Part shown: positions 42,677-49,379 of the stretch, piece after piece | How positions within the stretch are numbered: the first letter of the stretch is position 1 | Layout of the letters: every line of letters starts with the position of its first letter | NCBI GenBank assembly: GCA_030446485.1 | Contig: JAUJNF010000001.1 | Location: 539,964-603,963 of the forward strand | DNA: 64,000 bases | From: Thermoleophilaceae bacterium | GTDB lineage: Bacteria > Actinomycetota > Thermoleophilia > Solirubrobacterales > Thermoleophilaceae | Direction: 5' to 3' | Program-made: the position numbers and the translations under genes | Notes under the pieces: model-generated | Seen by the model: the letters and a program-made list of their open reading frames with translations, nothing else | Told to the model about the DNA's origin: nothing | The model's database searches: none

Positions 42677-44239
42677 CTACTCCACCACCAGGCCGTGACG
42701 CATCGTGTTCTCCGTGACCACGTGCGGGCCCACGAACTGCAGCAGGTAGTCCGGCCCGCCGGCCTTGGCGCCCACGCCCGAGCGGCGATTGCCGCCGAAG
42801 GGCTGGCGCCCCACCATGGCGCCGGTGATGTGCCGGTTCACGTAGAGGTTGCCGACCGGCGACCGCCGCGCCACCAGCTCGACCGTGCGCGGGTTGCGCG
42901 AGAAGAGCCCCCCGGTGAGCGCGAACGGGGAGGCCTCGATCCGATCGGTGGCCTCCTCAACGTCGCCGACGCGCTCCACCGCCACGAGGGGACCGAAGAC
43001 CTCCTCGGTCAGGACCGCGGAAGCCTCGGGTAGATCACAGGCCACGGTCGGGGCGCAGAAGAAGCCGGGCTCGGGGAGCTCGTCCTGCCGGGCCACGACG
43101 CGGCCCTCGGCGCCCGCGAGCGCGGCGTAGCGCTCGACTCGCTCCTGTGCCTCGCGCTCGATCACGGGCGGCACATCGGTCCCGAACGTACCCGCCTGTC
43201 CGACTCGCAGCACCTCGACCGCGCCGGCAAGGCGCTCGAGGAGCGGGTCGGCGATCGCCTCGTGAGCCAGGATCCGCGCGGCGGCCGAGCACTTCTGACC
43301 GGCGTAGACGAACGCCGAGCGCACGATGGCGGGCACCGCCTCGTCGAGGTCCGCGTCCGAGTCCACGATCACGGCGTTCTTGCCCCCCATCTCGGCCACG
43401 ACCCGCTTCACGTGACCCTGCTCGTCGGGCGTCTCGGCAGCCGTCCGCACGATCTCGAGCCCAACGGCGCCCGACCCGGTGAAGGCGATCGCGTGCACGC
43501 CCGGGTGGCGCACCAGTGCCTGGCCGGCCTCCCCGTAGCCCGGGAGCAGGGCCAGCGCCTCCGCCGGCACGCCCGCCTCCCTCAGGGCCTCGGCGAGCAT
43601 CAGGGCCGATCCGGGCGCCTGCTCCGCGGGCTTCAGCACCACCGCGTTCCCGGTCGCGAGCGCCGCGGCCACCATCCCGCACGGGATGGCCAGCGGGAAG
43701 TTCCACGGGGAGATCACCGCCACCACGCCGAGCGGCCTATAGGTCATCGTGTTGCGCTCGCCGGGGACCTGGATGAGCTCCCGGCCCGCCGCCAGCTCGA
43801 CCGCCTGGCGGGCGTAGTACTCGAGGAAGTCGATCGCCTCGCACACGTCGGCGTCGGCCTCGGCCCAGGGCTTGGCGCACTCGAGCACCTGCAGCGCCGC
43901 CAGTGGCGCGCGCCGGGCGCGTAGGACTCCCGCGGCGCGGAGAAGAACCGCCGCCCGCTCCTCGGCCGACCGGCCGCCCCACTCGCGGTGGCCGCGGCCG
44001 GCCGCCGTCACAGCGGCGTCCACGTCACTGGCGGACGCCGTTCCCGCTACGGCGACGACGCGGCTCGGCCGGCCCGGGTCCAGCGACTCGATCCCCTCGC
44101 CTGCGCCGCTCTGGTCCCCGATCAGAACTGGCACCCGCAGCGGGAGCGAGCGCTCGACGCCTGTGAGCGCGGCGGTGAGCGACTCCCGCACCTCGCCACG
44201 GCGCAGGTCGAGCACCGGCTCGTTGGAGAACGGGTTCAC
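42677..44239 (-). CDS. L-glutamate gamma-semialdehyde (1-pyrroline-5-carboxylate) dehydrogenase
   Basis: 520 residues, aldehyde dehydrogenase superfamily, PutA/PruA branch. Oxidises glutamate semialdehyde to glutamate with NAD+. Visible: SPWNFPLAIPCGMVAAALAT, FTGSGAVGLEIVR, catalytic Glu in VAEMGGKNAVIVD, catalytic Cys in AGQKCSAAARI, TEEVFGPLVAVERV and the family-specific NLYVNRHITGAMVGRQPFGG. Overlaps the proline dehydrogenase by 4 nt and so acts on its product. Confidence 0.95.
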   Translation of the reverse strand: MNPFSNEPVLDLRRGEVRESLTAALTGVERSLPLRVPVLIGDQSGAGEGIESLDPGRPSRVVAVAGTASASDVDAAVTAAGRGHREWGGRSAEERAAVLLRAAGVLRARRAPLAALQVLECAKPWAEADADVCEAIDFLEYYARQAVELAAGRELIQVPGERNTMTYRPLGVVAVISPWNFPLAIPCGMVAAALATGNAVVLKPAEQAPGSALMLAEALREAGVPAEALALLPGYGEAGQALVRHPGVHAIAFTGSGAVGLEIVRTAAETPDEQGHVKRVVAEMGGKNAVIVDSDADLDEAVPAIVRSAFVYAGQKCSAAARILAHEAIADPLLERLAGAVEVLRVGQAGTFGTDVPPVIEREAQERVERYAALAGAEGRVVARQDELPEPGFFCAPTVACDLPEASAVLTEEVFGPLVAVERVGDVEEATDRIEASPFALTGGLFSRNPRTVELVARRSPVGNLYVNRHITGAMVGRQPFGGNRRSGVGAKAGGPDYLLQFVGPHVVTENTMRHGLVVE

Positions 44240-45588
44240 GGGGCGGCCAGCAGGCGGTCGAGATCGGCACCGCGGGCCTGCTCGCTGAGGAACGAGTCGT
44301 TGGCCGTGTTCTCGAGCAGCCGGCGCACCAGGTAGGCCATGCCGGCCACCATGTCACCCACGGGGCAGTAGGCCCGCACACGCAGATCCTGACGCGTGAG
44401 CGCGTGCAGCAGGTCGTCGCCGAGCCCCCGCAGGACCTGGAGCTCCAGGTCCTCGTCGGCCCCGCCGCGCGTCCGGTTGTAGCCGATCGCGTGCGCGACC
44501 GAGCGCAGGTTGTGAGACGCCACCGCCACGCGCACGAGAGGACGTGCGTCGAGCAGGCGGCGCGTGAGCGCCTCGAAGTTGCGGTCGGACTCCCGCTTGT
44601 CCTCGAAGACGGGCGGAGCCCAGCCGTGCTGGCGGGCCTCCACCACCTCGTGATCCCAGTAGGCGCCCTTCACGAGCCGCACGGTAAGCGCTGGGCGGCG
44701 GCCGCTGGCCCGAGCCCAGGCGAGGATCCGGTCGAGCTGCTCCGCGGAGTCGCGCAGGTAGGCCTGGAGCACGATCCCCGCCGACGGGCCGTCTGCGAGC
44801 TCGTGCTCGTCGAGCAGCTCGAACACCAGCTCGAGCGTGGTCTCGAGCGAGTCGAGCGACTCCATGTCGATGTGGAGGTGGGCGCCGAGGTCACGGGCGC
44901 GCCGGAGCAGGGGGCGCAGCCGGCGGGCGGCGTCGTCGCGCCCCACCTCCGGCGCCTCGGGACGCAGCAGCGGCGTGAGCGCGGAGACCTTCACGGAGAG
45001 GTTCGCGCGCGGCAGCGGGCCTGCCGAGTCACGCTCGAGCGCGGGCCGCTCGGGCCACGCGGCGCACGCCTGCGCAAGGGTCTCCAGCGCATCGGAGCAG
45101 CGCACCGCGTAGCGGTCGGCCTCGGCGGCGGTCACCGTGGCCTCGCCGAGCAGGTCGACCGAGCTGGCCGCGCCGCCGTCCCACAGCCCACCGAGTACAC
45201 CGAGGGCCGCCCGCGGCGACTCCCCGACGATGAAGCGATGGGCCATGTGCCGGACGCCACGGGCCGAGGCTGCGCCGAGCACCGCCCGGCCCGGCCCGGT
45301 CTCGGCCATTCGCATGGCAACGCGCAGCGGCGGCGGAGTCTGCTCGACCTCTCCCAGGAAGCCGGCCAAATGCCGCGAGAGGTCATCGAGCGAGCGGCAC
45401 GCGGGGGTCACGTCCACGAACCGGAACAGCGCGGCCTTGAGCTCCGCGTCCTCGGATGCGAGCTGCATGGCACGCTCGTCGAGGCTGCGCACGGGATGCC
45501 GCGCGCGGGAGGGAAGCGCGCGCTCGAGCGCACCTCCGATCTCCCTGATCCGGCGCTCGAGCTCCCCCTCGTCCACCACGCCCGGCAA
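44236..45588 (-). CDS. Proline dehydrogenase (PutA-type, monofunctional)
   Basis: 450 residues. FAD-dependent oxidation of proline to pyrroline-5-carboxylate, with electrons to quinone. Barrel motifs: LSVKVSALTPLLRPEA, HIDMESLDSLETTLELVFEL, LQAYLRDSAEQLDRIL, VRLVKGAYWDHEVV, and the C-terminal proline-binding helix YCPVGDMVAGMAYLVRRLLE. At 450 residues with an N-terminal helical domain it is longer than the about 300-residue PutB/PrnD type and looks like the front half of a PutA fusion. TTG at 45588 is the first start; a GTG 9 nt later is also possible. Confidence 0.93.
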   Translation of the reverse strand: MPGVVDEGELERRIREIGGALERALPSRARHPVRSLDERAMQLASEDAELKAALFRFVDVTPACRSLDDLSRHLAGFLGEVEQTPPPLRVAMRMAETGPGRAVLGAASARGVRHMAHRFIVGESPRAALGVLGGLWDGGAASSVDLLGEATVTAAEADRYAVRCSDALETLAQACAAWPERPALERDSAGPLPRANLSVKVSALTPLLRPEAPEVGRDDAARRLRPLLRRARDLGAHLHIDMESLDSLETTLELVFELLDEHELADGPSAGIVLQAYLRDSAEQLDRILAWARASGRRPALTVRLVKGAYWDHEVVEARQHGWAPPVFEDKRESDRNFEALTRRLLDARPLVRVAVASHNLRSVAHAIGYNRTRGGADEDLELQVLRGLGDDLLHALTRQDLRVRAYCPVGDMVAGMAYLVRRLLENTANDSFLSEQARGADLDRLLAAP

Positions 45589-45629: not shown

Positions 45630-45854
45630 ATGGCCGAGCGGATCATGTACACCAAGCCCGGCTGCCCCTATTGCGGGGAGGCGCGCGCCGGCCTCACCGC
45701 CGAGGGCCTCGAGTTCGAGGAGCGCGATGCCACCACCAGGCGCGAGTGGCGCGACGAGCTGTACGCGCACTCCCCGGCCGGCCGCGTGCCCACGATCGTG
45801 GCCCCCGACGGCGTGACCGTCGGGTGGCACGGCGGCGGCTGACGCGTCCCCTGA
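45630..45854 (+). CDS. Glutaredoxin-like putative selenoprotein (Uxx-star type), Sec at in-frame TGA 45840-45842
   Basis: The frame up to the first TGA gives 70 residues: a glutaredoxin-like fold with MYTKPGCPYCGEARAGL (CPYC at 12-15), FEERDATTRREWRDEL and RVPTIVAPDGVTVGW, ending HGGG before the TGA. Reading the TGA as selenocysteine adds U-R-V-P and a second TGA at 45852-45854. Small glutaredoxin-like proteins with a Sec two residues before the stop are known as Uxx-star proteins (established family, recalled); here three residues follow. A hairpin with GGTC loop begins 14 nt after the TGA, as expected for a bacterial SECIS. Alternative: a plain 70-residue glutaredoxin. Confidence 0.72.
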
Positions 45855-45856
45855 GG

Positions 45857-45874
45857 GGCGGCCGGTCGGCCGCC
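45857..45874 (+). promoter_or_regulatory. SECIS-like hairpin downstream of in-frame TGA
   Basis: GGCGGCC (45857-45863) and GGCCGCC (45868-45874) pair perfectly across a GGTC loop. The apical loop starts 21 nt after the TGA and has G in its first two positions; bacterial SECIS elements need a stem-loop with such a G roughly 16-37 nt after the UGA. It could instead be part of a terminator, but no T-run follows. Confidence 0.55.
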
Positions 45875-45946: not shown

Positions 45947-46735
45947 TTGCACGAGACCACACCCACCGTCTTCCTGATCGCCCGTCCGTCGCTGGACGTC
46001 GACGGGCTGCGCGGGTACCTGCGAGACGTCGGCGGCGAGTCGTGGCTGGAGCGGCGCGTGGACGAGAGCGGCGACGCCGTCAACGCCGGCGAGCTCCTCG
46101 TGGAGTTCGGCGGCCGGGCCTGCTACCGCAGCTGGGAGCCAGGCCTCAACCCGAACGTCACGCGCGTGCGCACCGACCAGCGGGAGTACTTCGAGAACCT
46201 GTTGCGCAGCGCGCACGGCAGCGTGCTGGAGCACGCGAACTACTCGTTTGTGCTTCGGAACGTCTCACGAGTTTTCACTCATGAGCTCGTCAGACATCGC
46301 GCCGGCTCGGCCTTCAGCCAGGAGAGCCTGCGCTACGTGCGCCTCACCGACATCGGCTTTCGCGTGCCCCCCGCGCTCGAGCCGGTGCGCGAGCAGGTGC
46401 TGAGCATCGTCGAGCAGCTCGAGGAGTTCCAGGTCGAAGCCGCCGGCAAGCTTGGTATCGACGACGAGGGGGTGCCCTTCCACGTGAAGAAGGAGGTCAC
46501 GTCCGCGCTGCGGCGCCTCGCGCCGATCGGGCTCAGCACCGACATCGTGTGGACGGCCAACGTGCGCACGCTGCGGCACGTGATCGAGATGCGCACCGCC
46601 GAGGGCGCCGAGGAGGAGCTGAGGCTCGTCTTCGACGTGATCGCCCACACGATGCAGCGCGAGGCACCCGGCCTGTTCCAAGACTTCGAGCGGACCGCCG
46701 ACGGCTCCTGGGTGCCCGAGCACCGCAAGGTCTGA
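45947..46735 (+). CDS. thyX: FAD-dependent thymidylate synthase
   Basis: 262 residues from TTG. Makes dTMP from dUMP with FAD and methylene-tetrahydrofolate. The ThyX signature RHRAGSAFSQESLRY (RHRxxSxxxxSxR) is intact, with upstream GSVLEHANYSFVLRNVSRV and the later NVRTLRHVIEMRTAEGAEEE. TAGACT precedes the TTG by 10 nt. No ThyA is seen in the window. Confidence 0.95.
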   Translation: MHETTPTVFLIARPSLDVDGLRGYLRDVGGESWLERRVDESGDAVNAGELLVEFGGRACYRSWEPGLNPNVTRVRTDQREYFENLLRSAHGSVLEHANYSFVLRNVSRVFTHELVRHRAGSAFSQESLRYVRLTDIGFRVPPALEPVREQVLSIVEQLEEFQVEAAGKLGIDDEGVPFHVKKEVTSALRRLAPIGLSTDIVWTANVRTLRHVIEMRTAEGAEEELRLVFDVIAHTMQREAPGLFQDFERTADGSWVPEHRKV

Positions 46736-47738: not shown

Positions 47739-49379
47739 CTAGCGCCGGCGGACCTGCAGCCGGTAGGCGGCGTCGATGCGGCCCACCGCGGCGTCGATGT
47801 AGACGCTCACGAACACCGTGGCCGGGCGCCCGAGGCGATTGGTCACGGTCAGCGTGTCGGTCTTGCCCGCGGGGCGGATGGAGCGCCCGATCAGGCGCTT
47901 CTGCGAGAACACGGTCCTGGCCCCCACCCGGAAGGCCTCGAGATCGGGGTCGCCGAAGCGGGGCAGCGTGCGGACCGACAGCGTGCTGCGCGGCGGCGCC
48001 ACGAGCCGCCAGACGTCGATCGGATCCTCGAGGCGGTGCAGCTTCGCGTCCAGGGAGCTCGAAGCCTGACCGGACCGAAGGATCGACGGATCGGGGGACG
48101 CGAAGCGCCGACCGTCGATCCACTCTATGTCGTCGTTGGGCTCGCCGAGGTCGGGCACCGGAGTGGGCGAGGCAAGCGCCGCCCCCACGTCCAGCAGCCC
48201 GTTGCCGAAGTCCGAGTCGTAGCCGCGTGGACCCAGGTCACGTGCGGAGGACCGCAGGATCTCGGCTATCTGCCCGTTGGCGAGGGTGGGACGCTCGGCG
48301 CGGAGCCAGGTTGCCGCAGCGGCCACCATCGGGGACGAGAAGCTGGTGCCGGGCAAGCCCGCGTAGCCGTCACGCGCGCCATCCGAAACGTCGAAGCGCA
48401 GGGGCACGGTGGTGAGCACGTCGACCCCGGGCGCGGAGATGTCGATCGCCTGGTTCTGGTTGCTGAACTCGGCCGACCTGTTGTCCTTGGTAGTGGCCGC
48501 GACGGAGAGGACGTGGGGGTCGGAGGCCGGCCGGATCGGGAGGTTGCCCTCCTGGAACTCGTTGCCCCCGGAGGCCACCGGCAGCACCCCCTGCCCGAAC
48601 GCGTACTGAGTGGCCAGGTAGTGCGCATAGCAGTCGTTCTCCGCGAAGCCGTAGCTCATGTTGATCACCGCCACGCGAGCGGCCACCAGCCGGTTGACCG
48701 CCGCCACCACGGACTCGCAGGTCTGCTCGTCGGGCGCAACGAGCACCCGCATCCCCGGCCATATCCCGACGATGCCCGTGCCGTTGGCGGCCGCGCCGGC
48801 GATCCCGCTCACGGCGGTGCCGTGCTCCTCTGTCACGCCCGTGGTGTTCGTGCTCTGGACGTTGCCCTCGCGGAGATCGGGATGGGTGAGATCGACCTGC
48901 GCGTCCACCACGCCGAGTCGGGGGCTCTGGGCGGTCACCGGCGGTGGAGTGAGCCCGGGATCGACGACGGCCGGGAGCCACCACTGGCGCGGGGTCAGCG
49001 GATCGGACGGAAAGCCGGCGCGTGTGGACCGGACGCTCGGCTCGGCAAACGACAGGCGGCCGGCCGCGCGGAGCGCGGCGGCAAGCGGGCGGGCGCGGTG
49101 GCGGTCGATCGCGTACACGCCCGCCGCAGGCAGCAGCGGTCGGGCGCCCGAGCGGCGAGCGATCCGCTCGGTGGCCGCACCGGGGCGGCCGCCGATGATC
49201 CAGGTGTCGGAGGCGCCGGCGCGCGAGGCGCCGGCCGGCGAGGGCAGCTCCACGGGCGGCGTCTGAGGGATGCCGCCGGCCGGCGCCGGGGCACCGGAGG
49301 CACCTGCGGGGAGCAGCGCCGACACCACTAGGAGGGCACCAACGAGCGAGTACCACGCGCGTGCCCGAGCGGTGGTCAT
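47739..49379 (-). CDS. Secreted subtilisin-like serine protease (S8)
   Basis: 546 residues. Signal peptide (WYSLVGALLVVSALLPAGAS), a short propeptide (GASDTWIIGGRPGAATERIA), then the S8 domain: Asp in LGVVDAQVDLTHPDL, His in EEHGTAVSGIAGA, Asn in LPVASGGNEFQEG and Ser in GLPGTSFSSPMVAAAA. All catalytic residues are present. The last 140 residues look like a beta-rich pre-peptidase C-terminal type domain (LEDPIDVWRLVAPPRSTLSV). Exported and active outside the cell. TACCAT lies 8 nt before the ATG. Confidence 0.93.
   Translation of the reverse strand: MTTARARAWYSLVGALLVVSALLPAGASGAPAPAGGIPQTPPVELPSPAGASRAGASDTWIIGGRPGAATERIARRSGARPLLPAAGVYAIDRHRARPLAAALRAAGRLSFAEPSVRSTRAGFPSDPLTPRQWWLPAVVDPGLTPPPVTAQSPRLGVVDAQVDLTHPDLREGNVQSTNTTGVTEEHGTAVSGIAGAAANGTGIVGIWPGMRVLVAPDEQTCESVVAAVNRLVAARVAVINMSYGFAENDCYAHYLATQYAFGQGVLPVASGGNEFQEGNLPIRPASDPHVLSVAATTKDNRSAEFSNQNQAIDISAPGVDVLTTVPLRFDVSDGARDGYAGLPGTSFSSPMVAAAATWLRAERPTLANGQIAEILRSSARDLGPRGYDSDFGNGLLDVGAALASPTPVPDLGEPNDDIEWIDGRRFASPDPSILRSGQASSSLDAKLHRLEDPIDVWRLVAPPRSTLSVRTLPRFGDPDLEAFRVGARTVFSQKRLIGRSIRPAGKTDTLTVTNRLGRPATVFVSVYIDAAVGRIDAAYRLQVRRR

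What the first reader, a model, noticed from the sequence alone, without database searches (positions are those of the whole stretch)
45630..45874. Glutaredoxin-like gene with in-frame TGA followed by a SECIS-like hairpin: probable new selenoprotein
Seen: a 70-codon CPYC glutaredoxin frame ends HGGG-TGA-R-V-P-TGA. A 7-bp perfect stem with GGTC loop (45857-45874) puts the apical loop 21 nt after the first TGA, with G in the first two loop positions. Known: bacterial SECIS hairpins act at about this distance, and a family of small glutaredoxin-like Uxx-star selenoproteins ends in Sec plus two residues. Inference: this TGA is read as selenocysteine. The extra residue (Sec plus three) would be a variant of that ending.
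Basis: partly seen in the sequence, partly recalled or inferred. Interest (0 to 1): 0.85.

Follow-up and report, generated by a model that had tools for sequence, protein, structure and literature searches.

The report
Selenocysteine-tailed glutaredoxin, one residue longer
The gene is very probably a real selenoprotein: a tiny glutaredoxin whose 'stop' codon is read as selenocysteine near its end; its family is already catalogued, but this branch ends one residue later than every relative examined outside it.

Summary
Window 45630-45854 (+) encodes a 70-codon CPYC glutaredoxin, then TGA-Arg-Val-Pro-TGA, then a 7-bp hairpin with a GGTC loop 21 nt after the first TGA. The hairpin alone is weak evidence: 11% of all TGAs in the window have a comparable one. 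The decisive evidence is comparative. All 11 order-level homologues have TGA at the same codon, then x-V-x-stop; the valine is invariant with synonymous codons and the real stop is TGA or TAG. Sixteen phylum-level homologues have Cys exactly there. The hairpin keeps its pairs through both-sided changes. The genome holds selA-selB, selD, tRNA-Sec(UCA) and a UGA-containing formate dehydrogenase gene with the same GGTC-loop hairpin. The protein scores above cut-off for NCBIfam NF041212 (Uxx-star) only when the TGA is read through. So the family is known, not new. What is unusual is the ending: Sec plus three residues in one well-supported clade (11 of 11), against Sec or Cys plus two in the other 37 tails read. 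I propose that the tail selenol works with the CPYC thiol; supporting this, the Cys homologues have CxxS and keep only the tail Cys as a candidate partner.

The parts
45630..45854 (+). Coding sequence of the selenoprotein: 74 residues (MAERIM...GWHGGG-Sec-RVP) plus stop
   Evidence: Translation with TGA=Sec; NF041212 70.4 bits over cut-off 66 when read through, 64.3 (below cut-off) when stopped at the first TGA
45663..45674 (+). CPYC redox motif (C12-P-Y-C15)
   Evidence: Translation; C12, P13 and C15 invariant in 30 Sec homologues
45840..45842 (+). TGA read as selenocysteine (codon 71)
   Evidence: TGA at this codon in all 11 order-level and 19 class-level homologues; Cys in 16 phylum-level homologues
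45843..45851 (+). Three-residue tail R-V-P after Sec
   Evidence: 11/11 order homologues have x-V-x-stop; V invariant with GTC/GTG synonymous variation
45852..45854 (+). True stop codon (TGA; TAG in two homologues)
45857..45874 (+). SECIS hairpin: 7-bp stem, GGTC apical loop 45864-45867; lies entirely after the stop codon
   Evidence: pair conservation 94.6%, covariation 0.496 against 0.166 shuffled
44236..45588 (-). Divergent neighbour: proline dehydrogenase, start 41 nt from the selenoprotein start; followed by P5C dehydrogenase 42677-44239 (-)
   Evidence: upstream in 7 of 11 homologous loci
45947..46735 (+). Downstream neighbour: ThyX, FAD-dependent thymidylate synthase
   Evidence: TIGR02170 109.1 bits, Pfam Thy1; a Thy1-family gene is adjacent in 9 of 11 loci

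Best explanation
The TGA at 45840 is decoded as selenocysteine. SelB with Sec-tRNA-Sec (UCA anticodon) binds the GGUC-loop hairpin 21 nt downstream; translation then adds Arg-Val-Pro and stops at the TGA at 45852, which is too close to the hairpin (9 nt) to be recoded. Comparative genomics supports this strongly; no experiment does yet. The product is a 74-residue glutaredoxin-fold protein, cut short after the fourth strand, carrying CPYC near its N terminus and Sec at the fourth position from the C terminus on a glycine-rich tail. Inferred function: a thiol/selenol oxidoreductase in which the tail selenol pairs with, and resolves or attacks disulfides together with, Cys12. It is a clade-specific lengthened variant (Sec+3) of the catalogued Uxx-star (Sec+2) family, most simply by gain of one codon between Sec and stop.
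For: 1) Sec machinery in the same assembly: tRNA-Sec 66 bits, called tRNA-SeC(tca) by ARAGORN; selA 505 bits next to selB 306.7 bits on contig C20; selD 388.8 bits. 2) The same genome has a formate-dehydrogenase-type frame with an in-frame TGA (ENQARI-U-HSSTVPGLG), followed by a perfect 7-bp stem with a GGTCT loop 18 nt later, the same element as here. 3) 11/11 order homologues: TGA at codon 71, then x-V-x-stop, V as GTC or GTG, stop TGA (9) or TAG (2). 4) 19/19 class homologues: TGA, two residues, then TGA/TAG/TAA. 5) 16 phylum homologues: GCxx-stop, Cys at exactly the Sec position. 6) Hairpin retained 18-22 nt after the TGA in order members (two needed re-registering by eye), with C-G/G-C and G-C/U-A swaps; 94.6% of cells paired against 73.3% shuffled (0/500). 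7) NF041212 passes its cut-off only with read-through. 8) Tree: Sec+3 rows form one clade, 95/82. 9) Model pLDDT 90.4, glutaredoxin fold, TM up to 0.81 to solved structures. 10) Cys forms have CxxS (16/16) and so depend on the tail Cys as a possible resolving thiol.
Against: There is no expression, mass-spectrometry or selenium-labelling evidence. The assembly is a 76%-complete draft. Two of the 11 carriers show no selA and no selB over cut-off (G010, 74% complete; G016, 87%), although G016 has tRNA-Sec. In one homologue (L087) the stem has a U-C mismatch (read by eye). The Sec-Cys12 pairing is inferred; model coordinates could not be measured here. A metal-binding role, suggested for Uxx-star proteins in PMC13188914, is not excluded.
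Confidence: 0.95

Rival explanations
1. The first TGA is an ordinary stop: a 70-residue glutaredoxin-like protein, with a GC-rich hairpin after it that is a terminator or chance.
For: Such hairpins follow 11% of TGAs in this GC-rich window; single-sequence fold z-score is only -1.44.
Against: Cys in 16 homologues at this codon and TGA in 30; invariant Val with synonymous codons and a fixed second stop after the TGA; NF041212 falls below cut-off if truncated; no T-run follows the hairpin.
Confidence: 0.03
2. TGA is recoded, but the tail Sec is a metal or metalloid ligand rather than part of a dithiol/selenol redox pair with CPYC.
For: The review PMC13188914 suggests metal binding for Uxx-star Sec residues; C12, C15 and Sec together could form a three-ligand site (inference).
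Against: Glutaredoxin fold with a conserved cis-Pro region (VPT) and CPYC; Cys homologues lose the second CxxC Cys but keep the tail Cys, which fits a resolving role, though two ligands could still bind metal; no metal-resistance genes among the immediate neighbours annotated.
Confidence: 0.3
3. The second TGA (45852) is also recoded, giving a longer protein.
For: It is TGA in 9 of 11 homologues.
Against: Two homologues have TAG there and relatives have TAG/TAA at the corresponding stop; spacing to the loop is only 9 nt, outside 16-37; the frame afterwards is not conserved.
Confidence: 0.01

Closest known systems
NCBIfam NF041212, Uxx-star family glutaredoxin-like (seleno)protein
   Same: Same fold, CPYC motif, Gly-rich tail, Sec aligned to the same model column; 70.4 bits over the cut-off of 66
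   Different: Stops at Sec+3 instead of Sec+2; only 4.4 bits over cut-off, and one clade member (L021, 59.6 bits) falls below it
NF041114 / NF041211 / NF047338 (UXX-star families 1, 2, 3) and NF045501 HUGP/GUXX-star fusion
   Same: Related models covering the same region
   Different: All scores are well below their cut-offs (40.2 of 72, 46.8 of 100, 39.3 of 97, 44.3 of 325)
Cys-ending homologues in phylum family f23 (e.g. L123, L125), also NF041212
   Same: GC-x-x-stop tail with Cys at the Sec position
   Different: Cys instead of Sec; CxxS instead of CPYC
Classical selenoglutaredoxin (UxxC) and formate dehydrogenase selenoproteins
   Same: Bacterial UGA/SECIS decoding; the same genome's formate dehydrogenase gene has a GGTC-loop hairpin
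   Different: Sec lies in the active-site motif or Mo site, not in a C-terminal tail

Membership tests
Uxx-star (NF041212) | Score over the curated model cut-off | tested here: met
   70.4 bits against 66 with read-through; 64.3 without
Uxx-star (NF041212) | Sec (or Cys) aligned at model position 68 | tested here: met
   Alignment runs to model position 70 of 70 with residues 71-73 = U-R-V
Uxx-star (NF041212) | Exactly two residues then stop after Sec (the naming feature) | tested here: not met
   Three residues (RVP) then stop; the same in 11/11 order-level homologues
Uxx-star (NF041212) | Glutaredoxin fold | tested here: met
   Model pLDDT 90.4; best PDB matches are glutaredoxins, TM 0.7-0.8
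Bacterial selenoproteins | Sec machinery in the genome | tested here: met
   selA, selB, selD, tRNA-Sec(tca)
Bacterial selenoproteins | SECIS hairpin within the bSECIS limits | tested here: met
   7 bp, loop GGTC, 21 nt, limits from PMC13188914
Bacterial selenoproteins | Conserved Cys/Sec pair in homologues | tested here: met
   16 Cys homologues and 30 TGA homologues
Bacterial selenoproteins | Selenium shown in the protein | not testable with these tools
   Needs 75Se labelling or mass spectrometry

The most novel reading that the evidence does not exclude
A distinct 'Uxxx-star' subfamily exists in one bacterial order, in which the tail was lengthened by one codon between Sec and stop while the stop-to-hairpin spacing was kept. 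It may serve a partner encoded next to it: a Thy1-family gene adjoins it in 9 of 11 loci, and a divergent proline dehydrogenase lies upstream in 7 of 11.
Probability: 0.3. Interest if true: 0.5.

Novelty: new variant of a known kind. Interest (0 to 1): 0.4.

Why it matters
Genes like this are cut short by standard annotation: the truncated 70-residue product falls below the family cut-off and the functional residue is lost. The clade gives a natural comparison of Sec+2, Sec+3 and Cys+2 tails on one small fold, and of SECIS elements that lie wholly beyond the stop codon. The CxxS / tail-Cys homologues make the role of the tail residue directly testable.

Tried and rejected
The hairpin on its own as proof was rejected, because 11% of window TGAs match the same limits. 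Genome contigs was scanned with the single protein and gave one weak hit. The key papers on Uxx-star neighbourhoods (Haft and Tolstoy 2025; Haft and Gwadz 2023) are not held; deep-Sep does not mention the family. A read-through second TGA was rejected (TAG in two homologues). In one search the automatic hairpin register was wrong for L086 and L087 (stem placed too early); for both I used the GGTC-loop register, read from the sequences. L088 was likewise re-registered.

Full report
Observation. The frame 45630-45839 (+) encodes MAERIMYTKPGCPYCGEARAGLTAEGLEFEERDATTRREWRDELYAHSPAGRVPTIVAPDGVTVGWHGGG, followed by TGA (45840), CGC GTC CCC, and TGA (45852). The hairpin GGCGGCC-GGTC-GGCCGCC at 45857-45874 is as described; 21 nt separate the TGA from the loop. 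Taken alone the hairpin is not remarkable in such GC-rich DNA: 11% of 1226 TGA triplets in the window are followed by a hairpin of at least 7 bp that meets the published limits, and the folding z-score is -1.44. The specific form seen here (GG-first four-base loop, at least 7 bp, 17-25 nt away) occurs 3 times in 1226.

Sec machinery. The host assembly (2.6 Mb, 76% complete) has tRNA-Sec with anticodon TCA, selA and selB side by side on contig C20, and selD. It also has a formate-dehydrogenase-type frame interrupted by one TGA in the sequence ENQARI-U-HSSTVPGLG, followed 18 nt later by a perfect 7-bp stem with a GGTCT loop. An independent and classical kind of selenoprotein gene in the same genome therefore carries the same type of element.

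Homologues. A profile of eight sequences found the gene in 11 of 232 genomes of the order, each with one in-frame TGA at the same codon. Every one reads G-U-x-V-x-stop. The valine is GTC in seven and GTG in four; the codon before it varies among R, H, T and S; the final stop is TGA in nine and TAG in two. In 19 class-level sequences the ending is U-x-x-stop, with TGA, TAG and TAA all used as the stop. Two further phylum-level Sec members end GGGUSV-stop. Sixteen phylum-level homologues end GC-x-x-stop, Cys at exactly the Sec position, with no internal TGA. A Cys/Sec pair plus coding-type conservation beyond the TGA is the standard and strongest sequence evidence for Sec decoding. selA is over cut-off in 9 of the 11 carriers, and so is selB; the exceptions, G010 and G016, are fragmented drafts of 74% and 87% completeness, and G016 has tRNA-Sec.

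Hairpin. In the order members the GGTC loop lies 18-22 nt after the Sec TGA; in L086 and L087 the register was set by eye, because the automatic choice was wrong. In the class members most loops lie 16-20 nt away. Over 19 sequences with four-base loops, 94.6% of cells pair (73.3% when shuffled), three of seven pairs show changes on both sides, and the covariation score is 0.496 against 0.166 shuffled and at most 0.154 when the partner is slid. The helix lies wholly after the stop codon, so the conservation cannot be due to protein coding. Stop-to-loop spacing is similar in the two groups (mostly 6-11 nt), while Sec-to-loop spacing is on average about one codon larger in Sec+3 members. This is what insertion of one codon before the stop would give (inference).

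Family. With the TGA read through, the protein scores 70.4 bits against NCBIfam NF041212 (cut-off 66); truncated at the TGA it scores 64.3 and fails. The Cys homologues also score over this model (93.6 and 102.1 bits). The family is listed in a 2026 review of prokaryotic selenoproteins (PMC13188914). The Sec+3 rows form one clade (95/82), with the Sec+2 row from family f11 as its nearest relative (99/96 for the pair together). Sec+3 was not described in any paper I could read; the primary Uxx-star paper was not available.

Structure and mechanism. AlphaFold2 on the 30-row alignment gives mean pLDDT 90.4 with the order strand-helix-strand-helix-strand-strand and no final helix. The best solved matches are glutaredoxins and related thioredoxin-like proteins, TM up to 0.81. 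In ordinary glutaredoxins the chain after the fourth strand passes the glutathione site and enters a last helix (general knowledge); here it ends in GGG-Sec-RVP instead, so Sec is plausibly near Cys12 (inference, not measured). All 30 Sec sequences in the alignment have C12 and C15, whereas the 16 Cys sequences have CxxS. The tail Cys is then the only partner left for the first Cys, which favours a redox pair between the tail residue and Cys12. Metal binding remains possible.

Neighbourhood. Proline dehydrogenase and P5C dehydrogenase lie divergently upstream in 7 of 11 loci, with 41 nt between the two starts here (in L153 only part of the proline dehydrogenase is on the contig). A Thy1-family gene adjoins the selenoprotein gene in 9 of 11 loci: ThyX in the window, L152, L153 and L154, and a roughly 530-residue Thy1 protein with two matching stretches in L148-L151 and L155. 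Orientation differs: in L152 and L153 the ThyX gene faces the other way. This is therefore a lead, not evidence of a shared function.

Verdict. This is a real selenoprotein gene with very high probability, a lengthened clade-specific variant of the known Uxx-star family. Sec decoding rests on comparative evidence; the redox role is inferred.

Noticed in passing
L143 (own genome contig C15, match 501847-502593, outside the window): Formate-dehydrogenase-type gene with in-frame TGA (ENQARI-U-HSSTV) and a perfect 7-bp GGTCT-loop hairpin 18 nt later: a second selenoprotein gene in this genome.
   Followed up: partly
L123-L142 (phylum family f23): Uxx-star homologues with Cys at the Sec position all have CxxS instead of CPYC, as if the tail Cys had replaced the second motif Cys.
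   Followed up: partly
window 45947-46735; L148:6051-7643, L149:7-1272, L150:5982-7571, L151:5853-7442, L155:3683-5254: At the same place next to the selenoprotein gene some genomes carry ThyX and others a roughly 530-residue protein with two Thy1 matches (25% identity to ThyX over 140 residues).
   Followed up: partly
window 42677-45588: P5C dehydrogenase and proline dehydrogenase overlap by 4 nt and lie head-to-head with the selenoprotein gene; proline dehydrogenase is upstream in 7 of 11 homologous loci.
   Followed up: partly
window 47739-49379: Subtilisin-like protease related to type VII secretion mycosin (123.8 bits, below the cut-off of 278.75).
   Followed up: no
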